From Flintibacter sp. KGMB00164 (GTDB lineage Bacteria > Bacillota > Clostridia > Oscillospirales > Oscillospiraceae): a DNA stretch of 64,000 bases. Shown here one piece after another: positions 410 through 12,647 of the stretch. The number at the start of each line of letters is the position of its first letter. The first letter of the stretch is position 1. The notes beneath the pieces were generated by a model that saw nothing but the letters and a program-made list of their open reading frames with translations, was not told the origin of the DNA and ran no database searches. The position numbers and the translations under genes were made by a program. Location of the stretch: contig NZ_CP044227.1 of NCBI RefSeq assembly GCF_008727735.1, forward strand, positions 2,553,001 to 2,617,000, in the 5' to 3' direction.

Positions 410-2269
410 TTACTTCTTGTCGTCATCCACGACAGTGTAGTCCGCGTCCACTACGTCATCGCCGCCGTTGCTGCCGCCGGCCTGGCCGCCGCCGAAGTTG
501 GCGCCGCCCATGTCAGGGCCGGGACCAGCCTGGCCGCCCTGCTGCTGGTAGAGCTTCTCGCTGACCGCGTAGAAAGCCTTCTGCAGCTCCTCGGTGGCGT
601 TCTTGATGGCCTCGGTGTCGGAGCCCTTCAGGGTCTCCTTCAGCTTGCCCAGAGCGCTCTCGATGTTGGAGCGGTCGCCGGCGTCCATCTTGCCGCCCAT
701 CTCCTCCAGGGCCTTCTCGGTCTGGAAGACCATCTGGTCGGCCTGGTTGCGGGTATCGGCAGCCTCGCGCTGCTTCTTGTCCTCGGCGGCAAACTGCTCA
801 GCCTCACGCACGGCCTTATCAATGTCGTCCTTGGACATGTTGGTGGAGGAGGTGATGGTGATGTGCTGCTCCTTGCCGGTGCCCAGGTCCTTGGCGGACA
901 CGTTCACGATGCCGTTGGCGTCGATGTCGAAGGTAACCTCGATCTGAGGCACGCCGCGGCGGGCGGGAGCGATTCCGTCTAGATTGAAGCGGCCCAAAGT
1001 CTTGTTGTACTGAGCCATCTCACGCTCGCCCTGGAGTACGTGGACCTCAACGGAGGTCTGGTTGTCCGCGGCGGTGGTGAAGGTCTGGCTCTTCTTCACG
1101 GGGATGGTGGTGTTGCGCTCAATGAGCTTGGTCATCACGCCGCCCATGGTCTCAATGCCCAAGGACAGGGGGGTGACGTCCAGCAGCAGCAGGTCCTTCA
1201 CGTCGCCGGTGAACACGCCGCCCTGCAGGGCCGCGCCCAGAGCCACGCACTCGTCGGGGTTGATGCCCTTGAAGCCTTCCTTACCGGTGAGCTTCTTGAC
1301 CATCTCCTGGACCGCGGGGATACGGCTGGAGCCGCCCACCATCAGGACCTTGGAGATGTCGTTGCCGCTCAGGCCAGCGTCGCCCATGGCCTGACGCACA
1401 GGACCGGCAGTGGCCTCCACCAGGTGAGCAGTGAGCTGGTCAAACTTGGCGCGGCTCAGAGTCAGATCCAGGTGCTTAGGACCGGTAGCGTCGGCGGTGA
1501 TATAGGGCAGGTTGATGTTGGTGGAGGTGACGCCGGACAGCTCGATCTTAGCCTTCTCAGCGGCCTCCTTCAGGCGCTGCATGGCAACCTTGTCGCCGGT
1601 CAGGTCGATGCCCTCGGCCTTCTTGAACTCAGCGGCCATCCAGTCCATCACGCACTTATCGAAGTCATCGCCGCCCAGACGGTTGTTACCGGCAGTGGCC
1701 AGAACCTCGATGACGCCGTCGTCGATGTCCAGGATGGACACGTCGAAGGTGCCGCCGCCCAGGTCGTACACCATGACCTTCTGAGCGGTCTCCTTATCCA
1801 CACCGTAGGCCAGAGCGGCAGCGGTGGGCTCGTTGATGATACGCTTGACCTCCAGGCCGGCGATCTTGCCGGCGTCCTTGGTGGCCTGACGCTGAGCGTC
1901 GGTGAAGTAAGCGGGGACGGTGATGACGGCCTCGGAGACGGTCTGGCCCAGATAGGCCTCGGCGTCAGCCTTCAGCTTCTGAAGGATCATGGCGCTGATC
2001 TCCTGAGGAGTGTACTTCTTGCCGTCGATGTCCACCTTATAGTCGGTGCCCATCTCACGCTTGATGGAGATAACGGTGCGGTCGGGGTTGGTGATAGCCT
2101 GGCGCTTGGCCACCTGGCCCACCATACGCTCGCCATCCTTGGAAAAAGCCACCACAGAAGGAGTGGTGCGGTTGCCTTCGGCGTTGGGGATAACGACGGC
2201 GTCGCCGCCCTCCATAACCGCCACGCAGCTGTTAGTCGTACCTAAGTCAATACCAATGATCTTGGACAT
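410..2269 (-). CDS. dnaK: Molecular chaperone DnaK (Hsp70)
   Basis: ATP-dependent Hsp70 chaperone of the cytosol, working with DnaJ and GrpE. The 619 residues are the normal length. The N-terminal phosphate loop [18 protein letters not shown], the [14 protein letters not shown] motif and [10 protein letters not shown] mark the nucleotide-binding domain (about 1-360). The linker [13 protein letters not shown] leads to the substrate-binding domain and a helical lid. The end is a Gly/Asn-rich disordered tail closing with acidic residues and Lys-Lys. The start has an AGGAGG ribosome site 7 bases upstream. It is third in the operon after hrcA and grpE, and controlled by HrcA at the upstream CIRCE. 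Confidence 0.98.
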
Positions 2270-2328
2270 AATGTGTTTCCTCCTAATATATGAAAAGATT
2301 GTTGTTTACAAAAATTTATAAGGGTTAT

Positions 2329-2462
2329 ATTGTCACGCTGCGGATTGGACGCGCGGCCGGGTCGCTTTCGCTCCGTCTCGGGCTGGTCTCCGGGCCGCCC
2401 TGCGGCCCTGCGCTCGCCCTCGCTGCGCTCCAAGCTCCCCTGCGCGTCTATCCTCCGCGCTT
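2329..2462. repeat. Intergenic repeat, copy B (grpE-dnaK spacer)
   Basis: Second copy of the block at 268-404, same orientation, 134 bases. It occupies most of the gap between the grpE stop and the dnaK ribosome site. Its centre holds extra GC-rich self-complementary sequence (GGGCCGCCC-type) absent from copy A. Confidence 0.7.
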
Positions 2463-2466
2463 CGTA

Positions 2467-3051
2467 TCAGTTAGCCACCTTAACCATGGCAAACCGGATG
2501 ACCTTGTCGCCCAGCTGGAAGCCGGCCTGGAACACGTCGCAGACGGTGTTCTCGCCGAAGTTCTCATCCTCCACATGCATCACGGCATTGTGCAGGTTGG
2601 GATCAAAGGTCTGGCCCAGAGCGGGGATTTCGGTGATGCCCAGCTTTTCCAGCACGGTCTTGAGCTGGGTCATGGTCATCTCCACGCCCTTCTTAAAGGC
2701 CTCGTCGGCGGTTTCCTGCTTGAGAGCCCGCTCCAGATTGTCGTACACCGGCAGGAAGGCCACAGCCGCATCCGCTTTGGCGTCGTTCCAGATGGAGTCC
2801 TTCTCCTTGGCGGTACGGCGGCGGTAGTTGTCATACTCGGCGGCCAGACGCAGGTATTTGTCCTCCTGCTGGGCCACCTGATCCTTCAGGGACTCCAGCT
2901 CAGTGAGGAGGGGATCGGCGCTCTCGCTCTGAGCCTCGCCCTGGGGCTGGGTCTGCTCGGCCTGGGGTTCGGTCTGAACCTCAGCCTGCTGCTCCACCGG
3001 CTCCTGCTGCTCCGGAGCGGTCTGCTCCGCCTTATTTTCTTTCTTGCTCAT
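2467..3051 (-). CDS. grpE: Nucleotide exchange factor GrpE
   Basis: Homodimeric exchange factor that releases ADP from DnaK. The 194 residues begin with an acidic, Gln/Glu-rich disordered segment (about 1-50). A long coiled coil follows (LESLKDQVAQQEDKYLRLAAEYDNYRRR is its hallmark region), then the C-terminal beta domain containing FDPNLHNAVMHVED and ending near GFQLGDKVIRFAMVKVAN. The ATG at 3051 has AGGAGG about 11 bases upstream. It lies 15 bases after hrcA, so the two are co-transcribed. Confidence 0.97.
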   Translation of the reverse strand: MSKKENKAEQTAPEQQEPVEQQAEVQTEPQAEQTQPQGEAQSESADPLLTELESLKDQVAQQEDKYLRLAAEYDNYRRRTAKEKDSIWNDAKADAAVAFLPVYDNLERALKQETADEAFKKGVEMTMTQLKTVLEKLGITEIPALGQTFDPNLHNAVMHVEDENFGENTVCDVFQAGFQLGDKVIRFAMVKVAN

Positions 3052-3066
3052 GAACTAATGTTCCTC

Positions 3067-4128
3067 CTATTCCTGGTCGTTCCCGTCGCCGGGGGGAAGC
3101 TCCCCCTTGCCGAACATCCGGGTCAGGCTGTCGGCGAAATAGGACAGGCGGGCGGTCACCTTGGCGTAGTCCATCCGGGTGGGTCCTACCACCCCGATGA
3201 CGCCCCGCATATTATCTCCAATGTCATAGCTGGCCATGACCACGCTGGTATCCTTCAGCGCCTCGCTGACGTTTTCCGGCCCGATGAGAATATTCATATT
3301 CTGGCCGTTCTCCATGGATACCGGCAGCTTGGACCCCTCCTGGTTTTCCGCCAGGTAGGTCATCAGAGGCTTGGCCTTGTCCAGACTGCGGTACTCAGGG
3401 TGTTCCAGCAGATGGGTGATCCCCGAGGTGTGAATGGTCTGGCTGCGCTGCTCCTGAAGCACCTCGATGGCGTACTGCACTACCATGGAGATCAGGTTGA
3501 ATGCCCCGGGTGCGGAACGGGTCTCCATCTTGTCCAGGGTCTGTTCCATCTCCTCCACGGTCAGACCTACAAAGGAGCTGTTCAAAACGGTGGACAGCAG
3601 CTGCAGCTGGGTGTCGGAGAGCTCATCGGACAGGTGGATGAGCTTGTTGCGCACCACCGAGTTGTCGGTCATCACCACAGCGATAAAGGCGTTTTCCTCT
3701 ACCATCAGCAGGTCGTACCGCTTTACCGTCACCCGCTGCTTGGGCTGGGCCATGGTAAAGACGGGGTAGTCGCTGATCTGGGAGAGCACCTTGCCCGCCC
3801 GGTCGATGACCCGGTCCAGCTCCTCCATTTTCAGGTTCAGCGCGTCGTTGATGCGCTGGGTCTCCTGCATGGTCAGCTGGTGCTCACCCATGAGCTCGTT
3901 GACGTAGAGCCGGTAGCCCATGGGGGACGGAATCCGTCCGGCCGAGGTGTGGGGCTGCTCCAGATAGCCCAGTTCGGTGAGGTCGGCCATCTCATTTCGT
4001 ATGGTGGCGGTGGAGATGTCCAGTCCGGCCTGCTCTGCCACGGCCTTGGAACCTACCGGTTCCGCGGTGGAGATATAGATCTCAACAATGGCCCGCAGGA
4101 TTCGCTTTTTTCGATTGGTCAGCTCCAT
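3067..4128 (-). CDS. hrcA: Heat-inducible transcription repressor HrcA
   Basis: Repressor of class I heat-shock genes; binds CIRCE and is kept active by GroE in the Bacillus model. I place the start at the ATG at 4128 (MELTNRKKRIL), 353 residues, because GGAGG lies 7 bases upstream. A longer reading from 4164 would begin inside the CIRCE operator. The N-terminal winged helix includes AEPVGSKAVAEQAGLDIS and ATIRNEMADLTELGYLEQPH. A GAF-like middle and dimerisation region follow. First gene of the operon, autoregulated by the adjacent operator. Confidence 0.97.
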   Translation of the reverse strand: MELTNRKKRILRAIVEIYISTAEPVGSKAVAEQAGLDISTATIRNEMADLTELGYLEQPHTSAGRIPSPMGYRLYVNELMGEHQLTMQETQRINDALNLKMEELDRVIDRAGKVLSQISDYPVFTMAQPKQRVTVKRYDLLMVEENAFIAVVMTDNSVVRNKLIHLSDELSDTQLQLLSTVLNSSFVGLTVEEMEQTLDKMETRSAPGAFNLISMVVQYAIEVLQEQRSQTIHTSGITHLLEHPEYRSLDKAKPLMTYLAENQEGSKLPVSMENGQNMNILIGPENVSEALKDTSVVMASYDIGDNMRGVIGVVGPTRMDYAKVTARLSYFADSLTRMFGKGELPPGDGNDQE

Positions 4129-4157
4129 ACTCTCGCCTCCATTTCTCTTTCTATGTT

Positions 4158-4184
4158 TTAGCACTCATTCTCCTTGAGTGCTAA
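4158..4184. promoter_or_regulatory. CIRCE operator
   Basis: A perfect TTAGCACTC - 9 bases - GAGTGCTAA inverted repeat, the exact HrcA-binding consensus. It lies between the promoter at 4189-4217 and the hrcA ribosome site, so HrcA would block transcription of its own operon. Confidence 0.97.
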
Positions 4185-4244: not shown

Positions 4245-4280
4245 AAAAAAAGCCCGGCATTTCTTTGCAGAAATGCCGGG
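4245..4280 (-). terminator. Terminator of the aromatic superoperon
   Basis: An 11-bp stem, CCCGGCATTTC with GAAATGCCGGG, has a 6-base loop and is followed on the minus strand by seven T residues. It lies 17 bases past the aroQ stop. Confidence 0.93.
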
Positions 4281-4296
4281 ATACTGCTAATTTGAC

Positions 4297-4728
4297 TTAC
4301 CGTTGTTTCCCAGTCAGATATTGAATGGCGGCCCGGTACCCCTCAAAGCCCATGCCGATAAAGGACTTCTCACAGGCCATCCCCGCATAGGAGATGTGCC
4401 GGAACTCCTCCCGGGCGTTCACATCGGACAGGTGGACCTCCACCGCAGGCAGGCCCACCGCCTTCAGGGCATCCAGAATGGCCACGCTGGTGTGAGTGTA
4501 GGCAGCGGGGTTAATGACGATGCCATCCATCTTCCCATAGGCCCACTGGATTTTATCCACAATGGCCCCCTCGTGGTTGGACTGGAACAGCTCCACCTGA
4601 GCACCGCACTCGTCTGCCGCCTGGTGAATAAAGGTCTCCAGGGCGGCAAAGTCCTGCTTGCCATAGATATCGGGTTCCCGAATGCCCAGCATATTAAGGT
4701 TGGGGCCGTTGATGACCAGAATTTTCAT
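4297..4728 (-). CDS. aroQ: Type II 3-dehydroquinate dehydratase
   Basis: Converts 3-dehydroquinate to 3-dehydroshikimate, the third shikimate-pathway step, as a dodecamer. At 143 residues it is the usual size for the type II enzyme. Visible motifs are INGPNLNMLG with the catalytic loop at the N terminus, SNHEGAIVDKI, INPAAYTHTSVAILDAL with the catalytic region, and EVHLSDVNAREEFRH. It overlaps the aroE-aroK stop by 4 bases (ATGA), so it is translationally coupled. It is the last gene of the superoperon, just before the terminator. Confidence 0.97.
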   Translation of the reverse strand: MKILVINGPNLNMLGIREPDIYGKQDFAALETFIHQAADECGAQVELFQSNHEGAIVDKIQWAYGKMDGIVINPAAYTHTSVAILDALKAVGLPAVEVHLSDVNAREEFRHISYAGMACEKSFIGMGFEGYRAAIQYLTGKQR

Positions 4729-5948
4729 CCCATCACCTTCCTGATGATCTCGTCCACGGTATCTTCCACCGTGCCGTTGTTGTCCACCGTCACCTGGGCC
4801 ATAGCCTCATAGAGGGGCGCCCGGCGGCGGTAGAGCTCCTCCCGGGGCACGCTCTGGGAGACAGGCCGGCCGTCGGTGGGCAGCTTATGAAGGTCTCGGC
4901 GCAGCCAGACCACCACGGAATTTTCCTCCATGGGGTCCCGGTTCTCCGGCCGGGTCACGATACCCCCTCCGGCGGAGATGACCTGACCGGACTCCTTGGC
5001 GATCTGAGCCAGAGCCCGGTGCTCCCGGACCCGGAACCCCTCCTCCCCTTCGCTGGCAAAGATGTGGGGGATGGAGCAGCCCGCCTCTTCTATGATCTTC
5101 TCGTCCACATCGGCCAGAGGGCGGCTCAGCCGCTGGGCCAGCGCCTTGCCAATGGTGGTCTTGCCGCAGCCGGGCATGCCGATGAGGAGGATGTTTTTCG
5201 TCTCCCGCTCCAGCTTGGCCGTGATATCCGCCACCAATTCGTCGGGCAGCTTTTTGCCCTGGAACCGCTCGGAGGCCGCCTTGGCCTGGGCCACCAGCAT
5301 CCCCAGGCCGTTGCCCCAGATGAGCCCCCGGCGCTGTGCCTGGAGGAGCAGCTGGGTTTTCGAGGGGTTATAAATGAGGTCAAAGACACCCTCACACTGG
5401 GGGAACTGGTCCAAATCCACGGGGGAAACTCCGTTGTTCGGGTACATACCCACGGGAGTGGCGTTAACGATGATCTGGGCGTCAGCGTGGCGGTCCAGAT
5501 TCTGATAGTTATTCTCTCCAGAACGGGAGATGGTAACGACCTCCCTTGCCCCCAGCTCGGAGAGCACCGCCCGCACCGTAAGGGAGGCTCCGCCGCTGCC
5601 CAGCACCAGGGCTTTCCGGCCCTCTACCTGGGCTCCGGCGGACTTTAACAGGTACAGAAAGCCATCGTAGTCGGTGTTGTCCCCCAGCAAGGTGCCGTCG
5701 GGGCGGCGGAGGATGGTATTTACGCTGCCGATGCGCCGGGCGGCCGGGGTGAGCTCGGCACAGTACTCCATCACCGTCTTTTTATAGGGTATGGTGACGT
5801 TAAGGCCGTGAAACTCCCCCTTGCGCAGGAAGTCCCCCACCTCCTCCGGCTCCAGAGGGAAGAGCCGGTAGGAGTAGTTCCCCAGCAGGCTGTGGATTTT
5901 TGGGGAAAAGCTGTGGCCCAGCTTGCGGCCGATGAGCCCACAGTCCAT
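4725..5948 (-). CDS. aroE: Shikimate dehydrogenase - shikimate kinase fusion
   Basis: One continuous 407-residue frame joins two consecutive enzymes. Residues 1 to about 245 are shikimate dehydrogenase: GRKLGHSFSPKIH, the VTIPYKK catalytic Lys (about K56), GDNTDYDG with the catalytic Asp (about D93), the VLGSGGASLTVRA nucleotide loop, and NATPVGMYP. Residues from about 252 to 407 are shikimate kinase (AroK): Walker A GMPGCGKTT (about 257-265), ADVDEKIIEEAGCSIPHIF, the SAGGGIV shikimate-binding loop, and the RRAPLYEAMA region. The fusion would reduce dehydroshikimate and then phosphorylate shikimate. No internal start with a good ribosome site was seen at the junction. Confidence 0.94.
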   Translation of the reverse strand: MDCGLIGRKLGHSFSPKIHSLLGNYSYRLFPLEPEEVGDFLRKGEFHGLNVTIPYKKTVMEYCAELTPAARRIGSVNTILRRPDGTLLGDNTDYDGFLYLLKSAGAQVEGRKALVLGSGGASLTVRAVLSELGAREVVTISRSGENNYQNLDRHADAQIIVNATPVGMYPNNGVSPVDLDQFPQCEGVFDLIYNPSKTQLLLQAQRRGLIWGNGLGMLVAQAKAASERFQGKKLPDELVADITAKLERETKNILLIGMPGCGKTTIGKALAQRLSRPLADVDEKIIEEAGCSIPHIFASEGEEGFRVREHRALAQIAKESGQVISAGGGIVTRPENRDPMEENSVVVWLRRDLHKLPTDGRPVSQSVPREELYRRRAPLYEAMAQVTVDNNGTVEDTVDEIIRKVMG

Positions 5949-7102
5949 CAGCAGATCACCTCATTGTAAGTGCCCAAATAGCGGAAGTGCTCGCTCTCCT
6001 CCTCCAGGTCCCGGAAGATACGCTCCATCTCGGGGGCATACACGGAGCACTCCAGGTCGAAGTAGAACATGAACTCAAACTCCCGGTCAGGGAGAGGACG
6101 ACTCTCCAGCTTGCGCAGGTTGATGCCCAGGGCGTAGAACTTGGAGAGGACATTATAAAGGGCGCCGGGCTTGTGGGGCAGGGTCATCATCAGAGAGGTG
6201 CGGTCGGCCCCGGGATAGATCTCGGGATTCTTGGAGATGCAGATGAAGCGGGTGTAGTTGTTGTCCTGGTCCTGGACGTTCTGCTCCAGGAGGTTGAGAC
6301 CGTAGAGCTCGCCGCAGAAGCGGGAGGACAGGGCGGCCACATCCCGGCGCTCCGACTGGGCCACCATCTGGGCGGCCAAGGCGGTGTTCTCCACCACGGT
6401 GACCTTCACGCCCTTCAGGGTGGACAGGTAACCGGCACACTGGCTGATGGCCTGCTGGTGGGAGAAGATCTCCTTGATGTCCTCCTTTTTCACCCCGTGT
6501 TTGCACAGCAGGTTGTGGCTCACCTTCAGGCGGGCGGAGCGGACGATGGAGAAGTTGTGCTTGGTCATCAGGTCGTAGATGGCGTTGACGGAACCGGCGG
6601 TGCTGTTCTCGATGGGCAGCACGCCGTACTGGCACATGCCGCTCTCCACCGCCTTGAAGACGTGCTCAAAGGTATTGAAGTAGAGGATGGTCGGAGCCTT
6701 GAAGATGCTGTCGCAGGCGATCTGGGAGTAGGCGCCCTCCACGCCCTGGCAGGCCACGGTAGCCCGCTGGGGGAAGAGGTCGGGGGTGGTATCCAGGGCC
6801 TTGCGGATGGTCTCATACACCTTGGAGGTCACACCGGAGCAGGCGTTCTGGTAGGAGCGTCCGGCGGCCAGGATGGTGCGGTACACCGACTGGGTGTAGT
6901 CGGCCAGCTCTTCCCCGGCCTGCTCGCCCACCTTGCCCAGCAGGGCGCGCTCCCGGCCTGCGTCCAGGGTGGGCAGGCCGTTTGCCTGCTTATAGGCGGC
7001 CACCTCTTTGGAGACCTCCATACGCTGCTTGAACAGGTCCACCATCTGCTGGTCGATGGCGTCAATTCTCTCTCTCAGATCCTTCAGTTCTTCCATCTTC
7101 AA
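5948..7102 (-). CDS. pheA: Bifunctional chorismate mutase / prephenate dehydratase (P-protein)
   Basis: Committed enzyme of phenylalanine synthesis: chorismate to prephenate to phenylpyruvate. The 384 residues divide into an AroQ-type chorismate mutase helix bundle (about 1-85, LRERIDAIDQQMVDLFKQRM), prephenate dehydratase (about 113-290, ACQGVEGAYSQIA, VLPIENSTAGSVNAIYDLM and the NYTRF catalytic motif), and a C-terminal ACT domain with HKPGALYNVL and the ESRP motif typical of Phe-sensing ACT domains. So enzyme-level feedback by Phe is expected. Its stop shares one base with the aroE-aroK start. It lies downstream of aroC, with a palindromic repeat between them. Confidence 0.97.
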   Translation of the reverse strand: MKMEELKDLRERIDAIDQQMVDLFKQRMEVSKEVAAYKQANGLPTLDAGRERALLGKVGEQAGEELADYTQSVYRTILAAGRSYQNACSGVTSKVYETIRKALDTTPDLFPQRATVACQGVEGAYSQIACDSIFKAPTILYFNTFEHVFKAVESGMCQYGVLPIENSTAGSVNAIYDLMTKHNFSIVRSARLKVSHNLLCKHGVKKEDIKEIFSHQQAISQCAGYLSTLKGVKVTVVENTALAAQMVAQSERRDVAALSSRFCGELYGLNLLEQNVQDQDNNYTRFICISKNPEIYPGADRTSLMMTLPHKPGALYNVLSKFYALGINLRKLESRPLPDREFEFMFYFDLECSVYAPEMERIFRDLEEESEHFRYLGTYNEVIC

Positions 7103-7143: not shown

Positions 7144-7202
7144 GGCGAAACGAAGTTTCGCCCGAAAGCTCTTTTGCTTACTTTTCTCCCGAGAAAAGTA
7201 AG
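7144..7202. repeat. Palindromic repeat (double hairpin) at the 3' end of aroC
   Basis: Contains a 12-bp perfect palindrome, CTTACTTTTCTC with GAGAAAAGTAAG (7177-7202), and a second hairpin, GGCGAAAC gaa GTTTCGCC (7144-7162). The same two-hairpin arrangement occurs at 32973-33030 and twice at 48454-48580. The aroC stop codon and its last few codons lie inside the first palindrome. Confidence 0.75.
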
Positions 7203-8263
7203 TCGGTGAGAACGAGGGCTGTGACCGCCTCTACTACGGGAACCGCCCGGGGAACGATGCAGGGGTCATGGCGGCCGGTGACCACCAGCTCCTCCACCTG
7301 CTTTTTCGACAGGCTCACCGTCTGCTGTTGCTTGGCAATGGACGGGGTGGGCTTCACCGCCAGACGGAACACCAGGGGCATCCCATTGGTAATGCCGCCT
7401 AAAATGCCTCCGGCGTGGTTGGTCTCGGTAACCAGCTTCCCGTCCTTCACGGTAAAGGGGTCGTTGTTCTCCGAACCCCGCATAGTGGCCACGCCGAAAC
7501 CCGCGCCAAACTCCACGCCCTTCACCGCCGGGATACCAAACAGGGCGGCGGCCAGACGGTTCTCCATGCCGCCGAACATGGGCTCTCCCAGCCCGGCGGG
7601 CACCCCGGTGACCAGGCATTCCACGATGCCGCCTACCGAGTCGCCCTCCTCCTTGGCCTGGAGAATGACCTTGCGCATCTGCTCCCCCGCCTTCTCGTCC
7701 AGGACAGGGAAGGGGGCCCGCTTCAGAGCGTCCAGCGTCTCCACGCTCTCCCCCATGGGGTCGAAGGGCCGGTCGGCCTCTCCGGCGATAGAAGCGATGT
7801 GGGCGGCCACCTCAATGCCCCGGCGTTTTAACATCTGGAGGCAGATGCCGCCCGCAATGCACAGGGGCGCGGTGAGGCGGCCGGAAAAGTGGCCTCCCCC
7901 CGCCACGTCCTGAAAGCCGCCGTACTTCACCTGGGCGGTAAAGTCGGCGTGGCCGGGACGGGGCTTGTCCCGGAGCTGGGCGTAGTCCTGGGAGCGGGTG
8001 TTGGTGTTTTCAATGAGGGCGGCCAGCGGAGCACCGCAGGTCACATCGTCCACCAAGCCGCTGAGAAACTGGGGCAGGTCGGCCTCCTTGCGGGGGGTGG
8101 AGGTGGCGTTTTGTCCCGGAGCCCGGCGTTTTAAGAAACGGCCCAGCTCCTCCATGTCCACCCGCTCCCCGGCGGGCAGGCCGTCCACCACTACCCCGAT
8201 GGCCGGGGAATGGGACTGTCCAAAGACGGACACGTGGATATGTTCACCCAGATATGAGGCCAT
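7178..8263 (-). CDS. aroC: Chorismate synthase
   Basis: Last step of the shikimate pathway, EPSP to chorismate, needing reduced FMN. The 361 residues start MASYLGEHIHVSVFGQSHSPAIG, the usual N-terminal signature. Others are GRLTAPLCIAGGICLQML, GDSVGGIVECLVTGVPAGLGEP, the HAGGILGGITNGMPL motif, and GRHDPCIVPRAVPVVEA near the C terminus. Ribosome site GGAGGAG lies 6 bases before the ATG. It overlaps the end of aroA by 20 bases. The final residues (LLFSGEK) are encoded by an intergenic-type palindrome, suggesting that a repeat was captured at the gene end. Confidence 0.97.
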   Translation of the reverse strand: MASYLGEHIHVSVFGQSHSPAIGVVVDGLPAGERVDMEELGRFLKRRAPGQNATSTPRKEADLPQFLSGLVDDVTCGAPLAALIENTNTRSQDYAQLRDKPRPGHADFTAQVKYGGFQDVAGGGHFSGRLTAPLCIAGGICLQMLKRRGIEVAAHIASIAGEADRPFDPMGESVETLDALKRAPFPVLDEKAGEQMRKVILQAKEEGDSVGGIVECLVTGVPAGLGEPMFGGMENRLAAALFGIPAVKGVEFGAGFGVATMRGSENNDPFTVKDGKLVTETNHAGGILGGITNGMPLVFRLAVKPTPSIAKQQQTVSLSKKQVEELVVTGRHDPCIVPRAVPVVEAVTALVLTDLLFSGEK

Positions 8264-9428
8264 GTACTTCTCCTCCCAACGCAGTGTAGTCCTCCCAGAA
8301 CCGGGGATAAGATTTTTTCACGCACTCCGCACCCAAAATAGTCACCGGCTCTTTGCAGGCTACAGCGGCCACGGCGGCCATCATGGCAATGCGGTGGTCG
8401 TTACAGCCGTCCACTGTGCTGCCCTTCAGGTGGTCCAGCCCCTCCAGAATGAGGGTGTCCTCCCCCACCTGAGCCTTGGCTCCCAGGGCGTTTAACGTGC
8501 GGGCGATGGTCTCCAGGCGGTCGCTCTCCTTCATGCGCAGCCGCCCGGCATTGACAAAGCGGGTGGTTCCCTTCCGCACCGCCGCCATGACGGCCAGCGG
8601 GGGCGCCAGGTCGGGGCACTGGGACAGGTCAATGTCCACGTCTCCGGGCCGGGCCAGCTTCCAATAGAGGGTACCGATCTGCCGGTCTCCCTGGACGGAA
8701 TCGGGATTGAGCCCCTGTATGTCTACCTGAGCGCCCAAAAAGTTGGCGGCGTACCAGAAAGCGGCGCCCGACCAGTCGGCCTCCAGGGTCAGGTCCCGGG
8801 CCTGATAGCTCTGGTTTCCCGGCACCAGGAAGCCGTCCTCCTGCTCCTCCACCTTTATATCAAACCGGCGGAGCATATCCAGCGTCATATCCACATAGCC
8901 CCGGGATTCCAGGGGTGTGGTGAGGACAATTCGGCTGTCTCCAGGCAGCAGAGGCAGAGCATAGAGCAGCCCGGTGATAAACTGGCTGGACACGTTGCCG
9001 GGAAGGGCATAGACGCCCGGCTCCAGCTGACCTGCCACGGTCAGGTACGCCCCCTCTTGGTTCCACAAAATCCCCTTCTCCTCAAACAGACGGATGTAGG
9101 GACCCTGGGGCCGCTCCATCAGCCGTCCCCGGCCGGTAAAGTGGCCTCCGCCCCGCACAGCCAGGGCCACCGGGATGAGAAAGCGCAGGGTGGAACCCGA
9201 CTCGCCGCAGTCCAGCAAAGGCAGCCCATCCGCCTGCGCGGGCTGCCCGCTTTTCAGGGCGGCTACACAGTCCTGGGTGGCCTGGATATCCTGGGAAACC
9301 GCCAGGTTGGAGAGCTTGCCCTCCCCCTGGGCCAGCATGAGGGCCAGCACCGCCCGGTGGGTCTGGGACTTGCTGGAGGGCGGGGTGACCGCTCCCTTCA
9401 GCGTTCCCGCCAGAATGGTCACATTCAT
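8244..9428 (-). CDS. aroA: 3-phosphoshikimate 1-carboxyvinyltransferase (EPSP synthase)
   Basis: Transfers the enolpyruvyl group of PEP to shikimate 3-phosphate. The 394 residues are slightly shorter than the common 420-430. Motifs seen: PPSSKSQTHRAVLALMLAQG (substrate-binding Lys-Ser), LLDCGESGSTLRFLIPVAL, the FITGLLYALPLL segment, RLRMKESDRLE, and GCNDHRIAMM. The Gly-Glu-Ser-Gly-Ser-Thr loop keeps the normal PEP-site pattern. GGAAAGGAA precedes the ATG. The aroB stop lies one base upstream, so the two are tightly coupled. Confidence 0.97.
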   Translation of the reverse strand: MNVTILAGTLKGAVTPPSSKSQTHRAVLALMLAQGEGKLSNLAVSQDIQATQDCVAALKSGQPAQADGLPLLDCGESGSTLRFLIPVALAVRGGGHFTGRGRLMERPQGPYIRLFEEKGILWNQEGAYLTVAGQLEPGVYALPGNVSSQFITGLLYALPLLPGDSRIVLTTPLESRGYVDMTLDMLRRFDIKVEEQEDGFLVPGNQSYQARDLTLEADWSGAAFWYAANFLGAQVDIQGLNPDSVQGDRQIGTLYWKLARPGDVDIDLSQCPDLAPPLAVMAAVRKGTTRFVNAGRLRMKESDRLETIARTLNALGAKAQVGEDTLILEGLDHLKGSTVDGCNDHRIAMMAAVAAVACKEPVTILGAECVKKSYPRFWEDYTALGGEVHGLISG

Positions 9429-9429
9429 G

Positions 9430-10515
9430 TCAGTTTCCTTTCCACATGGGGGCCAGAGCTTCCAGCAGCGCTTCCCGGGGCATGGCGTGGGGGACGGCCT
9501 TTCCCAGCTCCTCCAGCACGATGAGGCGGATGTCGCTGCCGGCGTTCTTCTTATCCAGACCCACCGCCTCCACCAGGGTATCCCAGGGACAGGGGATGGT
9601 GAGGGGCAGCTGATACTCCTTTAATATATTCTGGATGGTCTCGGTCGTTCCGGCGGGAGTGATGCCCATCTGCTCCCCCAGCCGGGCAGCTACACACATG
9701 CCCGCGGCCACCCCTTGGCCGTGGGTCCAGGTCTCATAGTGGCCGGCCAGCTCAAACGCATGGCCGATGGTGTGGCCGAAGTTCAGCACCATCCGCTCGC
9801 CGGTGTCCCGCTCGTCGTTGAGAACCACCTTGCGCTTGATGTCGCAGCAGGTGTGGATGACCTCCTCGATGTGCTCCATCACGCCGTCCCGTCCGCCCCA
9901 GGCGGCCAGCTTGTCAAAGAAGGCCCGGTCCCGGATGCAGCCGTACTTGATGACCTCAGCCATACCATCGGAGAAGGTGCGGTCGGTGAGGGTGGTGAGC
10001 ACCTCCGGGTCAATGAGCACTCCCTTGGGCTGCCAGAAGGCCCCGGCCAGGTTTTTACCCGCGTGCAGGTCGATGGCCACCTTGCCGCCCACGGAGGAGT
10101 CTACCTGCGCCAGGAGAGTGGTGGGGATCTGGATGTAATCCACACCCCGCAGCACGGTGGCAGCGGCAAAGCCCGCCAGGTCGCCCACCACGCCGCCGCC
10201 CAAGGCGACAACTCCGTCGGTGCGGGTAAGGCGGGCGGCCATCATGGCCTCCCACAGCTCCTGGAGCCGCTCCACACACTTGCTCTCTTCCCCGGCGGGA
10301 ACGGTGTGGAGGACGGCGGCAAAGCCGGCCTTCTCCAGGCTGTCCAGCACCCGCTGGCCATAGAGGGGGCCTACCGTGCTGTCAGTGACCACAAAGAGGG
10401 CCTTGGCCCGGGGCAGCACCGCCTTGCACCGCTCTCCTACCCGGTCCAGGAGCCCACGCTCAATTTCAATGTCGTAGGCCCGGCCGGGCAGGTCTACCGT
10501 CAGGATTTTACTCAT
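9430..10515 (-). CDS. aroB: 3-dehydroquinate synthase
   Basis: NAD- and metal-dependent cyclisation of DAHP to 3-dehydroquinate. I use the ATG at 10515 (MSKILTVDLPGRAYDIEIERGLL), giving 361 residues, the family norm. A longer frame extending to 10794 reads through tyrA and has no family resemblance. Motifs: VPAGEESKCVERLQELWEAM, VALGGGVVGDLAGFAAATVLRG with the NAD loop, PTTLLAQVDSSVGGK, GKNLAGAFWQP, and NFGHTIGHAFE supplying metal-binding histidines. It overlaps the tyrA stop by 4 bases. AGAAGGTGG lies upstream. Confidence 0.97.
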   Translation of the reverse strand: MSKILTVDLPGRAYDIEIERGLLDRVGERCKAVLPRAKALFVVTDSTVGPLYGQRVLDSLEKAGFAAVLHTVPAGEESKCVERLQELWEAMMAARLTRTDGVVALGGGVVGDLAGFAAATVLRGVDYIQIPTTLLAQVDSSVGGKVAIDLHAGKNLAGAFWQPKGVLIDPEVLTTLTDRTFSDGMAEVIKYGCIRDRAFFDKLAAWGGRDGVMEHIEEVIHTCCDIKRKVVLNDERDTGERMVLNFGHTIGHAFELAGHYETWTHGQGVAAGMCVAARLGEQMGITPAGTTETIQNILKEYQLPLTIPCPWDTLVEAVGLDKKNAGSDIRLIVLEELGKAVPHAMPREALLEALAPMWKGN

Positions 10516-11345
10516 TGTCCATCCACCTTCTCTTTGCAGATCCGGCCCTCCGCCAGGAGGGTACAAAGCCGGTCGCCGTTGCCCTGCTCCAGAGCTTCCC
10601 GGTACTCCTGAAGGCTGCCAATCATCTGGTCCAGTTCCTGGAGCAGGAAGGTCCGGTTCTCCAGAAACAGGTCGGTCCACATGTGCTCGTTGAGCCAGGC
10701 CACCCGGGTCAAATCCATGTAGCTGCCCGCCGAGTAGCCCTTGTGCATCTGGGCTCGGGGGCTCTTGACATAGGCGTTGGAGATGACGTGGCACATCTGG
10801 GAGGTATAGGCGATCATCTCGTCGTGGTGCTCCGCGGTGGTCACCGTCAGGTGAGCAAAGCCGGCAGGGGTGAGGAGCTTTTTCACCCGGTCCAGCAGCA
10901 AAATATCGTCGGCCTGGGGCGGGACCACTACCATGGGCGCCCCGTCAAACATATCCGCCTTGCTGTTGGCAAAGCCGGAGAACTGGGTGCCCGCCATGGG
11001 GTGGCCGCCCACAAAGGTGAAGCCATACTGCTCCGCCAGGCGGAAGCCCACCTTGCACACCTCCTGCTTGACGCCGCAGCAGTCCATCACCAAAGTGGTG
11101 CCGGGGATGTAAGGAGCCATACGCTCCAGATACTCCATGGTCACCTCGGGGTACAGGGCCACCAGCAGCAGCTCGCACTCCCCGATGGTGTTCTCGTCCA
11201 GGTCGCCCGCCAGCACCCCCTGGAGCTTGGCAAAGTCCTGGACAACCCGGTTTCCGTCGTAGCCGTACACGGTGGCGCCGCTGCGCTCGTAGGCCTTGGC
11301 TAGGGAGCCTCCGATGAGGCCCAGACCTGCAATTCCAACTACCAT
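10512..11345 (-). CDS. tyrA: Prephenate dehydrogenase
   Basis: NAD(P)-dependent oxidative decarboxylation of prephenate to 4-hydroxyphenylpyruvate, the tyrosine branch. The 277 residues open with a Rossmann loop, GIAGLGLIGGSLAKAYERSG. The active-site region GGHPMAGTQFSGFANSKADMFDGAP follows, then a helical dimerisation domain with SQMCHVISNAYV and SAGSYMDLTRVAW. No C-terminal ACT domain is present, so Tyr feedback probably acts on the DAHP synthase or by attenuation rather than here. Second gene of the superoperon. Confidence 0.95.
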   Translation of the reverse strand: MVVGIAGLGLIGGSLAKAYERSGATVYGYDGNRVVQDFAKLQGVLAGDLDENTIGECELLLVALYPEVTMEYLERMAPYIPGTTLVMDCCGVKQEVCKVGFRLAEQYGFTFVGGHPMAGTQFSGFANSKADMFDGAPMVVVPPQADDILLLDRVKKLLTPAGFAHLTVTTAEHHDEMIAYTSQMCHVISNAYVKSPRAQMHKGYSAGSYMDLTRVAWLNEHMWTDLFLENRTFLLQELDQMIGSLQEYREALEQGNGDRLCTLLAEGRICKEKVDGQ

Positions 11346-11355
11346 GCCTGCCTCC

Positions 11356-12372
11356 TTACTCCTCGCTCAGGGCGGCGGCACGCACCCGGCGCACCGCCTT
11401 GGCCACGTCCTCAAACTGCTCGGGCCGCAGGGACTGGGCGCCGTCGCACAGGGCGTGGGGCGGGTCATTGTGCACCTCGATGATGAGGCCGTCGGCGCCG
11501 CAGGCGGCGGCCGCCATGGCCATGGGCTTGACATACCGGGCCACGCCGGTGGCGTGGCTGGGGTCCACCACCACGGGCAGATGGGTGAGCTCATGGAGGA
11601 CGGTAACGGCGGACAGATCCAGGGTGTTGCGGGTGGCAGTCTCAAAGGTACGGATGCCACGCTCACAGAGGATAACGTTCTCGTTGCCGCCGGCCATGAT
11701 ATACTCCGCGCTCATCAGCAGCTCCTTGAGGGTGTTGGCAAGGCCCCGCTTGATGAGGATGGGTTTCCGGGTCTTGCCCAGCTCCTTCAAAAGCTCAAAG
11801 TTCTGCATGTTCCGGGCGCCCACCTGGATGACGTCCACGTCCTCGAAGAGAGGCAGGTGGTTGGCGTTCATGATTTCGGTGACGATGGGCAGTCCGGTCT
11901 CCCGCTTGGCCTCCAGCAGCAGCTCGATGCCGTCGGCCTTCAGGCCCTGGAAATCATAGGGAGAGGTGCGGGGCTTGAACGCGCCGCCCCGGAGCATGGT
12001 GGCTCCGGCAGCCTTGACGCTCTTGGCCACCGAAATGATCTGCTCCTCGCTCTCCACGGAACAGGGCCCGGCAATCAGGGCGAAGTTCCCGTGGCCCACT
12101 TTCAGCTTCTGCTCGCCAACTTCGATGATGGAGTCCTTGGGATGGAACTTCCGGTTGGCACTTTTAAACGGCTCAGAAATATGCTTGACCCCCTCTACAA
12201 TGTCCAGTCCGGTGATCAGGTCGTCATCCAGCTTGCTGATGTCGCCGATGACGCCGATGATGGTGGCGTAGTCTCCCTTGGAAACGTGGGTGCGCAGGTT
12301 CTGGGCCTCGATCCACTGGATCAGATCCCGTACCCGCTCTTCCTTGGCGTCCTGTTTTACAATGATAATCAT
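11356..12372 (-). CDS. aroF: 3-deoxy-7-phosphoheptulonate (DAHP) synthase, type I-beta with N-terminal ACT-like domain
   Basis: First shikimate-pathway enzyme: PEP plus erythrose 4-phosphate to DAHP. I start at the ATG at 12372 (MIIIVKQDAKEERVRDLIQW; GGAGGAG 7 bases upstream), giving 338 residues. A start at 12429 would lie inside the upstream terminator hairpin. Residues 1-70 form a ferredoxin/ACT-like regulatory domain, as in Thermotoga-type enzymes. The barrel carries LIAGPCSVESEEQI, MLRGGAFKPRTSPYDFQG, the QVGARNMQNFELLKELG segment, LIKRGLANT and VDPSHATG. First enzyme gene of the superoperon, so it is the point that the leader attenuator would control. Confidence 0.96.
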   Translation of the reverse strand: MIIIVKQDAKEERVRDLIQWIEAQNLRTHVSKGDYATIIGVIGDISKLDDDLITGLDIVEGVKHISEPFKSANRKFHPKDSIIEVGEQKLKVGHGNFALIAGPCSVESEEQIISVAKSVKAAGATMLRGGAFKPRTSPYDFQGLKADGIELLLEAKRETGLPIVTEIMNANHLPLFEDVDVIQVGARNMQNFELLKELGKTRKPILIKRGLANTLKELLMSAEYIMAGGNENVILCERGIRTFETATRNTLDLSAVTVLHELTHLPVVVDPSHATGVARYVKPMAMAAAACGADGLIIEVHNDPPHALCDGAQSLRPEQFEDVAKAVRRVRAAALSEE

Positions 12373-12405: not shown

Positions 12406-12440
12406 AAAAAGCCTGCGGTGAAGTGTCATTCACCGCAGGC
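12406..12440 (-). terminator. Intrinsic terminator in the aroF leader (putative attenuator)
   Basis: A perfect 12-bp stem, GCCTGCGGTGAA with TTCACCGCAGGC, has a 6-base loop and is followed on the minus strand by TTTTTCATTT. It sits after the Phe/Tyr-rich leader ORF and before the aroF ribosome site, inside the transcript. That is the position of an attenuator, not of an ordinary gene-end terminator. Confidence 0.9.
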
Positions 12441-12462
12441 CTAAAACTTCCCTATTCCCCGC

Positions 12463-12576
12463 TTACGCGAAACTGGGGAGCCCATTGTTTGCAGCAAAAA
12501 ACACTCTTACCTTTTTGAACCAAAAGCCAAAAAAGTAAAAGTAGCCAAAAAAGTAAGCCGCAAACTGCTTCATCAT
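12463..12576 (-). CDS. Phe/Tyr-rich leader peptide of the aromatic operon (putative)
   Basis: A 37-codon frame starts with two Met codons (ATG at 12576-12574), 8 bases after the strong AGGAAAGGAG site, and ends with TAA at 12463-12465. It encodes 11 Phe, 3 Tyr and 1 Trp. Residues 5-20 (FAAYFFGYFYFFGFWF) are almost a solid run of aromatic residues. Its stop is 22 bases from the attenuator stem. The bases TTCGCGTAAGC spanning the last codons can pair imperfectly with the left arm of the terminator, giving a possible antiterminator. Predicted role: ribosome stalling when charged tRNA-Phe or tRNA-Tyr is scarce. Caution: the tract also resembles the palindromic intergenic repeats of this genome. 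Confidence 0.7.
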   Translation of the reverse strand: MMKQFAAYFFGYFYFFGFWFKKVRVFFAANNGLPSFA

Positions 12577-12618
12577 GAAATTTGGCTCCTTTCCTCGTTC
12601 TCGCGTTGGGTTGTTTTT

Positions 12619-12647
12619 ATGGTAGCACCGGCTTTTCTCCCTGTCAA
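12619..12647 (-). promoter_or_regulatory. Promoter of the aromatic superoperon
   Basis: On the minus strand, TTGACA (12647-12642) and TACCAT (12624-12619) are 17 bases apart. Transcription would begin about 35 bases before the leader-peptide start. A second TTGACA occurs further upstream with a poor -10. Confidence 0.75.

What the first reader, a model, noticed from the sequence alone, without database searches (positions are those of the whole stretch)
12406..12647. Phe/Tyr leader-peptide attenuator controlling the whole aromatic superoperon
Seen in sequence: a TTGACA-17-TACCAT promoter, an AGGAAAGGAG ribosome site, a 37-codon ORF with 11 Phe, 3 Tyr and 1 Trp codons (16 residues almost all aromatic in the middle), then 22 bases on a 12-bp terminator followed by a U-run, then aroF. 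TTCGCGTAAGC at the ORF end can pair (with two wobbles, one mismatch and one bulge) with the left arm of the terminator. Stalling at Phe/Tyr codons would therefore free an antiterminator, whereas a ribosome at the stop codon would cover it. Ribosome-mediated attenuation by this logic is classic for pheA and trp in proteobacteria. Control of an eight-enzyme Clostridial superoperon covering both Phe and Tyr would be noteworthy.
Basis: partly seen in the sequence, partly recalled or inferred. Interest (0 to 1): 0.78.

Follow-up and report, generated by a model that had tools for sequence, protein, structure and literature searches.

The report
Phe/Tyr leader attenuator before aroF
A Clostridia-like bacterium appears to switch its phenylalanine/tyrosine pathway on or off by letting a ribosome stall, or not, on a tiny peptide packed with those amino acids, a classic mechanism that many of its relatives seem to use at the same gene.

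Summary
In detail: minus strand 12647-12406 holds a promoter, SD, 37-codon ORF (11 Phe, 3 Tyr, 1 Trp) and terminator, upstream of aroF-tyrA-aroB-aroA-aroC-pheA-aroEK-aroQ. TTCGCGTAAGC pairs weakly, without covariation. The conserved antiterminator is GUGUUUUUUGCUGC (12504-12491), which pairs with the terminator's left arm and loop (12436-12423) and competes with a 1:2 hairpin whose left arm is the Phe/Tyr codon run. Over 106 non-redundant leaders, own 1:2 and 2:3 partners pair far better than swapped ones (z -19.3, -14.5; control 1:3 -0.7). The antiterminator site occurs in all three frames: it is kept as RNA, the run as codons. Aromatic-run ORFs precede aroF in 84 of 98 genus/family regions and, with a terminator, in 43 of 69 class-level regions. 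In 13 selected two-copy genomes Tyr-rich leaders precede aroF-tyrA and Phe/Trp-rich ones aroF...aroB, without exception. The kind is known (pheA, trp; shikimate uORFs already predicted); new here are the architecture, the breadth, and codon content that tracks operon content. Nothing was tested at the bench.

The parts
12619..12647 (-). promoter: TTGACA, 17-nt spacer with TG, TACCAT
   Evidence: looser TTGA...TAnnnT match within 90 nt upstream of the leader in 71 of 109 leaders
12586..12595 (-). Shine-Dalgarno AGGAAAGGAG of the leader ORF
   Evidence: SD-like 4-mer in 87 of 109 leaders against 763 of 2180 composition-shuffled
12463..12576 (-). leader ORF, 37 codons: 11 Phe, 3 Tyr, 1 Trp
12557..12565 (-). 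region 1, outer 5' arm (GTTTGCGGC), pairs with 12495-12487
   Evidence: one search counted it one base shifted, 12566-12558
12527..12544 (-). region 1, inner 5' arm = Tyr-Phe-Tyr-Phe-Phe codons (CTACTTTTACTTTTTTGG)
12502..12517 (-). region 2, inner arm (CAAAAAGGTAAGAGTG), pairs with 12544-12527
12491..12504 (-). region 2, antiterminator strand (GTGTTTTTTGCTGC), pairs with 12436-12423; its GCTGC also closes the outer 1:2 helix
12423..12436 (-). region 3: terminator left arm and loop (GCGGTGAATGACAC)
12409..12442 (-). intrinsic terminator hairpin (3:4), followed by a T-run
11356..12372 (-). aroF, DAHP synthase
10512..11345 (-). tyrA, prephenate dehydrogenase
   Evidence: best NCBIfam hits below their curated cut-offs, E 3e-41
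9430..10794 (-). aroB, 3-dehydroquinate synthase (ORF as listed; match starts at residue 107, so the true start is further in)
8244..9428 (-). aroA, EPSP synthase
   Evidence: 284 bits, cut-off 287
7178..8263 (-). aroC, chorismate synthase
5948..7102 (-). pheA, chorismate mutase-prephenate dehydratase, ACT match just below its cut-off
4725..5948 (-). aroE-aroK fusion: shikimate dehydrogenase + shikimate kinase
   Evidence: NCBIfam hits shown are below their curated cut-offs; Pfam SKI and Shikimate_dh_N are above
4297..4728 (-). type II 3-dehydroquinate dehydratase (aroQ)
4253..4280 (-). terminator at the operon's end, before a promoter-like site (4217-4189) in front of hrcA

Best explanation
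This is a ribosome-mediated transcription attenuator that senses charged tRNA-Phe and tRNA-Tyr. With no ribosome, or with one that runs through to the stop codon, region 1 (the aromatic codons plus the GTTTGCGGC just before them) pairs with region 2. Region 3 is then left to form the terminator with region 4, and transcription stops before aroF. When Phe- or Tyr-tRNA is short, a ribosome stalled in the aromatic run (roughly codons 5-21) covers region 1. Region 2 then pairs with region 3 as soon as region 3 emerges and before region 4 is made, the terminator cannot form in time, and the eight-gene operon is transcribed. Shown by computation and comparison: the parts, their mutually exclusive pairings, the covariation, and the frame behaviour. 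Inferred: stalling, the read-out of tRNA charging, termination in vivo, and the kinetic order on which the switch rests.
For: Over 106 non-redundant leaders (window included), cognate 1:2 z -19.3 and 2:3 z -14.5 (0 of 5000 permutations each), with control 1:3 z -0.7. In the window, 1:2 has 15.9 expected pairs in the free transcript cut before region 4; with region 1 blocked, 2:3 has 12.6-12.7 pairs. Scan of ribosome positions: in the downstream-only model 2:3 has 10.9-12.7 pairs for a ribosome at codons 1-21 and falls over 22-24; in the masked model it is 0.0-0.2 for codons 25-34, and inner 1:2 is back at 14-16 pairs for codons 31-38. The 2:3 site starts in frames 0/1/2 of the ORF in 37/37/32 of 106, and the stop codon ends before the site's midpoint in 50 of 106. 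Genus codon columns of the run vary TTT/TTC and Phe/Tyr but stay aromatic in 15 of 16 aligned leaders; the exception, L059, is out of register by an indel. In 13 selected genomes with two aroF copies, leader Tyr content separates aroF-tyrA from aroF...aroB operons 13/13 against 0/13.
Against: No expression, Term-seq or ribosome-profiling data. In full-length transcripts at equilibrium the terminator wins in every state modelled, stalled ones too (3:4 11.8 pairs, 2:3 0.0 where computed), so the switch needs 2:3 to form before region 4 is transcribed. The balance of 1:2 and 2:3 in the window depends on where the RNA is taken to start: folding from 15 nt before the ORF, instead of from the predicted +1, leaves 2:3 formed even with region 1 free (12.8 of 14.2 pairs). 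That switch test also scored 131 of 405 shuffles as switch-like against 90 of 135 real leaders, so it is weak. If pairing across the ribosome is allowed, the outer 1:2 helix suppresses 2:3 for stalls at codons 13-18, 2:3 is also low at codons 7-8, and 2.8-5.7 pairs of 2:3 return at codons 35-38. In the downstream-only model a stall at codons 1-4 would give 2:3 as well, so the predicted sensing window is wider than the aromatic run. Within the genus alone 2:3 shows no covariation because both sides are nearly invariant (z 0.3), and 4 of 18 genus leaders pair weakly at the fixed site. Leaders of one operon type are related, so the 13/13 count is not 26 independent events.
Confidence: 0.9

Rival explanations
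1. One reading: the antiterminator is TTCGCGTAAGC at the end of the ORF; a ribosome at the stop codon covers it.
For: The segment can pair with the terminator arm (-9.3 kcal/mol in the window), has 1.9 expected pairs with region 3 in the free truncated transcript and overlaps the stop codon.
Against: Weaker than the region-2 site in 15 of 18 genus leaders (equal in L060, slightly stronger in L062 and L063), no cognate advantage (z 0.7), 0.0 expected pairs with region 1 blocked. Its flank instead takes part in a 5' UTR/SD pairing with cognate advantage (z -5.1).
Confidence: 0.04
2. The ORF encodes a small functional hydrophobic peptide and the terminator is incidental or constitutive.
For: Conserved start, SD and aromatic tract; small hydrophobic peptides exist.
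Against: The antiterminator site after the run is conserved as RNA, in all three frames or after the stop codon; strong 1:2 and 2:3 covariation; leader composition tracks operon content; no NCBIfam match.
Confidence: 0.02
3. A tRNA-binding T-box or another aptamer controls the terminator and the ORF is a by-product.
For: The same genome carries 13 T-box matches, 6 above the cut-off, so T-boxes are probably used there.
Against: No Rfam match at gathering threshold in the window; a permissive scan of the leader gives ten sub-threshold hits, none of them a T-box or riboswitch; the aromatic tract in frame points to translation.
Confidence: 0.02
4. Same three-helix RNA, but the switch mainly reads ribosome loading or transcription-translation coupling (SD sequestration by the leader's 3' end) rather than Phe/Tyr-tRNA charging.
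For: 5' UTR/SD x leader 3' part shows cognate advantage in 18 genus leaders (z -5.1, 0 of 5000); it is part of the free-state fold.
Against: Does not explain the aromatic codons or their match to operon content.
Confidence: 0.05

Closest known systems
Enterobacterial pheA / trp / his leader-peptide attenuators (recalled)
   Same: Leader ORF rich in codons of the end product; 1:2, 2:3, 3:4 competition; regulatory codons in the 1:2 arm; terminator before the first gene.
   Different: Two amino acids would be sensed together; in front of shikimate, Phe and Tyr branches in one operon; in the window the stop codon lies beyond region 2; no sequence relation was looked for.
uORFC-13-1 motif upstream of aroF in Acholeplasma (PMC8632094, passages read)
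   Same: uORF with Phe codon(s), possible promoter, SD and terminator ahead of aroF.
   Different: Acholeplasma and environmental sequences only, 24 examples; another base-paired substructure is mentioned, but no 1:2/2:3 scheme in the passages read; no Rfam hit of that name in the window.
Two uORFs with Phe and Tyr before shikimate genes in a five-genome survey that includes Clostridium novyi (PMC6429828, section 15 and passages read)
   Same: Phe/Tyr uORF linked to shikimate genes; perhaps the nearest published relative.
   Different: Only a figure legend seen; which of the five genomes, and whether pairing or mechanism was worked out, could not be read.
Leader-peptide attenuators of other Firmicutes: Bacillus hisZ/hisS* (PMC2965389, passages), S. 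aureus ilv (PMC5794164, passages)
   Same: Classical leader peptides in Firmicutes, in place of T-boxes.
   Different: Other amino acids and operons.
T-box leaders
   Same: Sense tRNA charging by alternative terminator/antiterminator (recalled); matches elsewhere in this genome.
   Different: No translation of an ORF; no T-box match at this locus.

Membership tests
Ribosome-mediated (leader-peptide) transcription attenuator | Short translatable ORF with SD and a run of codons for the pathway's end products | tested here: met
   (translation itself not tested)
Ribosome-mediated (leader-peptide) transcription attenuator | Intrinsic terminator between the leader ORF and the first structural gene | tested here: met
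   terminator downstream of the run in 135 of the 138 aromatic-run loci
Ribosome-mediated (leader-peptide) transcription attenuator | Mutually exclusive 1:2, 2:3 and 3:4 pairings | tested here: met
   equilibrium caveats
Ribosome-mediated (leader-peptide) transcription attenuator | Operon makes the amino acid(s) encoded by the run | tested here: met
Ribosome-mediated (leader-peptide) transcription attenuator | Read-through rises when the cognate tRNA is uncharged, and depends on leader translation | not testable with these tools
   needs bench work
T-box leader | Stem I / specifier loop and T-box bulge recognised by the RF00230 model | tested here: not met
   no match in the window although the search rings elsewhere in the same genome
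uORFC-13-1 (Acholeplasma aroF motif) | Match to the published consensus | not tested
   consensus figure not held; only passages read
Named leader-peptide or small-protein family | Match to a curated NCBIfam model | tested here: not met
   P0001 hits no model at E 0.001

The most novel reading that the evidence does not exclude
One widespread attenuator type governs aroF across much of Clostridia, and evolution retunes its amino-acid specificity by swapping codons while the RNA switch is kept: Tyr codons when aroF is joined to tyrA, Phe/Trp codons when it is joined to aroB...pheA, both when the branches are fused in one superoperon as here. Isozyme-specific end-product control, done in E. coli by separate repressors and isozymes (recalled), would then be written in the leader codons.
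Probability: 0.6. Interest if true: 0.65.

Novelty: new member of a known kind. Interest (0 to 1): 0.5.

Why it matters
In Firmicutes T-boxes are the better-known tRNA-charging sensors (recalled; also PMC2965389, passages). Here a translated leader seems to do that job for a whole aromatic pathway, although the same genome also carries T-box matches. The natural set of Tyr-type, Phe/Trp-type and mixed leaders is a ready test of whether leader codons alone set the specificity of an attenuator. It also gives a simple reading rule for annotating short aromatic ORFs upstream of aroF and, in two-copy genomes, for assigning each DAHP synthase to its branch.

Tried and rejected
Antiterminator TTCGCGTAAGC: rejected. 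T-box or other Rfam element: rejected (the best permissive hit, E 0.0075 to a microRNA family, is 20 bits against a gathering score of 50 and is taken as chance). First terminator finder allowed only even hairpin lengths and missed many terminators or picked the 1:2 hairpin; redone with all lengths. Per-leader duplex energies against shuffled upstream sequence were weak evidence (33 of 92 at or under 5 of 100 shuffles), so the cognate-against-swapped-partner test was used instead (78 leaders, 2:3 only, z -15.4, 0 of 20000, 106 leaders). Two switch scores: the first (67 of 135 up by 3 pairs or more, 5 down) counted any upstream partner of region 3 and was dropped; the second is weak, 90 of 135 real against 131 of 405 shuffled. 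Looking for other aromatic runs in the own genome: five consecutive Phe/Tyr codons occur at 17 places and the reversed control pattern at 39, so a run of five alone means nothing. A frame comparison of the run (aromatic fraction 0.67, 0.17, 0.19 in frames 0, +1, +2) is biased, because the run was chosen in frame 0, and is not used as evidence.

Rows dropped before counts. One search dropped 14 of 92 leaders whose best site lay outside 30-70 nt from the terminator. One search used 106 of 135 (26 same-genus repeats and 3 near-identical ones dropped). One search lost 2 of 18 leaders (L054, L058) that did not fit its anchor or length. The 13 two-copy genomes were chosen after seeing the leaders, out of 24 genomes tabulated. 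Not opened downstream: G037 (composition agrees), G050 (second leader unclear, does not show the contrast), and nine others that lacked a recognised leader at one or both copies or (G003) had two mixed leaders.

Full report
What is there. The ORF is MMKQFAAYFFGYFYFFGFWFKKVRVFFAANNGLPSFA*. The genes behind it are aroF, tyrA, aroB, aroA, aroC, pheA (chorismate mutase plus prephenate dehydratase), an aroE-aroK fusion and aroQ. Within them the minus strand shows only weak promoter- and terminator-like matches, and a 12-pair terminator follows aroQ at 4280-4253. The leader DNA has one place in the 2.92-Mb genome when searched at E 0.001. The closest named AroF record is a Lawsonibacter MAG, 88% identical (nearer records may be left out there).

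Is it more than chance. Among 98 aroF-upstream regions of the genus and family, 84 hold an ORF with at least 7 aromatic residues in 16; 490 mononucleotide shuffles of the same regions gave one. After adding 77 named loci, 138 of 173 regions with at least 300 nt held such a run, and 135 of these a terminator downstream of it. At the level of the class, 43 of 69 regions held both. Those 69 come from the better AroF matches among the 108 of 148 genomes with a match, so they are not a random sample. In the genus the aromatic columns change between TTT and TTC and between Phe and Tyr but stay aromatic in 15 of 16 aligned leaders; the 16th, L059, is out of register by an indel. The Trp codon is not kept (3 of 16).

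The RNA switch. Three helices compete. 1:2 pairs the codon run CTACTTTTACTTTTTTGG (12544-12527) with CAAAAAGGTAAGAGTG (12517-12502), extended by GTTTGCGGC (12565-12557) with GCTGCAAAC (12495-12487). 2:3 pairs GTGTTTTTTGCTGC (12504-12491) with GCGGTGAATGACAC (12436-12423), the terminator's left arm and loop. 3:4 is the terminator. In the transcript cut just before region 4 and starting at the predicted +1, 1:2 has 15.9 expected pairs and 2:3 0.1. Moving a ribosome along the ORF, the downstream-only model gives 10.9 to 12.7 pairs of 2:3 for codons 1-21 and a fall over 22-24. With the ribosome's footprint masked, 2:3 is 0.0-0.2 for codons 25-34 and inner 1:2 is back at 14-16 pairs for codons 31-38. 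Twelve of the 15 aromatic codons lie within codons 5-20.

Covariation. For 106 leaders (genus repeats and near-identical ones removed) I computed duplex energies of each region with its own partner and with all others. Own partners are better for 1:2 (-24.9 against -17.8 kcal/mol, z -19.3) and 2:3 (-14.4 against -10.7, z -14.5), with 0 of 5000 permutations as good; the control 1:3 shows nothing (z -0.7). The 2:3 site starts in frame 0, 1 or 2 of the ORF in 37, 37 and 32 of 106, and the stop codon ends before the site's midpoint in 50. So region 2 is kept as RNA, and the run, judged by the genus alignment, as codons.

TTCGCGTAAGC pairs weakly with the terminator arm and shows no cognate advantage in 18 genus leaders (z 0.7). 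The leader's 3' part instead shows a cognate advantage with the 5' UTR and SD (z -5.1), which suggests that it hides the leader's own ribosome site; this was noticed late and not followed further. Because the stop codon here lies beyond region 2, the off-state is best explained by 1:2 re-forming behind the ribosome. In 50 of 106 leaders the stop lies before or in the first half of the antiterminator site instead, so both designs exist.

Which amino acids. All 135 leaders hold both Phe and Tyr codons (737 Phe, 508 Tyr, 22 Trp in total); 18 hold Trp. In genomes with two aroF copies the leaders part company. In 13 opened genomes the Tyr-rich leader (Tyr fraction 0.56-1.0) precedes aroF-tyrA, and the Phe/Trp-rich one (0-0.33) precedes aroF with aroB as the first matched gene (in L281 and L292 after an unmatched stretch of about 0.5 kb): 13 of 13 against 0 of 13, Fisher p 2e-7. 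In the three genomes opened further, G078 and G022 show aroA, aroC, pheA and shikimate kinase after aroB, and G118 pheA and shikimate kinase (its two ORFs between were not scanned). The pairs were selected after seeing the leaders, and the leaders of each type are related, so this is consistency over 13 genomes, not 26 independent events. Among 120 further leaders with a readable downstream gene, the window's included, tyrA is next in 99 (median Tyr fraction 0.44), aroB in 17 (0.25), pheA in 2 and none matched in 2. The window has tyrA next and a Tyr fraction of 3 in 15.

Weak points. In full-length transcripts at equilibrium the terminator wins in all modelled states, so the switch is kinetic or nothing. 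The free-state fold depends on the assumed 5' end: from 15 nt before the ORF, 2:3 persists. The switch score separates real from shuffled leaders only by 67% against 32%. If pairs may span the ribosome, stalls at codons 13-18 do not give 2:3, codons 7-8 little, and some 2:3 returns at codons 35-38. In the genus alone 2:3 does not covary, being nearly invariant, and 4 of 18 leaders are weak at the fixed site. No experiment bears on stalling, termination or tRNA charging.

What is known. Leader-peptide attenuation is textbook for pheA and trp (recalled). In Firmicutes it was reported for hisZ/hisS* (PMC2965389, passages) and ilv in S. aureus (PMC5794164, passages). A Phe uORF before aroF was predicted in Acholeplasma (PMC8632094, passages). 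Two Phe/Tyr uORFs before shikimate genes were shown in a survey whose five genomes include Clostridium novyi (PMC6429828, one section and passages; figure and supplements not seen). A survey of structured RNAs in human microbiomes (PMC8040213, passages) had no hit for attenuation or shikimate in its main text. A 2010 comparative study of attenuation (Lopatovskaya et al.) is cited in PMC4833913 (passages); I did not see it. My nine searches listed no paper that I recognised as describing this attenuator in Oscillospiraceae or the link between leader codons and operon content; they cover an open-access library only, and most listed papers were not opened. I therefore file it as a new member of a known kind, with a pattern of codon retuning that seems undescribed.

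Noticed in passing
among L103-L114, L272-L299, L302, L304-L329 (family genomes with two aroF): Two aroF copies carry different leaders: Tyr-rich before aroF-tyrA, Phe/Trp-rich (often with GWARFMGxGFFG) before aroF...aroB.
   Followed up: partly
window about 12606-12584 with about 12483-12465: The leader's 5' UTR and SD can pair with the end of its own ORF (fold); this covaries in the genus and may limit re-initiation on the leader.
   Followed up: partly
G000 whole genome: 13 T-box matches, 6 over the cut-off, none in the window.
   Followed up: no
L049, L050 (same genus): L049 has its leader terminator 195-158 nt before aroF with extra sequence between; in L050 no leader was found within 450 nt, perhaps an insertion.
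   Followed up: no
window 410-4164: The aromatic operon is followed by hrcA and, by eye, grpE and dnaK, with a promoter-like site at 4217-4189.
   Followed up: no
L064-L074 (same genus): A second, diverged aroF type (62-66% identical protein) with a different leader (in most, AGCTTTACC...GGTAAGGCT-like 1:2 arms) but the same layout.
   Followed up: partly
L117, L118, L126, L136, L154, L156, L157, L182, L184, L188: Records titled Sutterella, Treponema(taceae), Bacteroidaceae, Lentisphaerae, Spirochaetales or Thermoguttaceae hold aroF close to the window's; the titles may be wrong, not tested.
   Followed up: no
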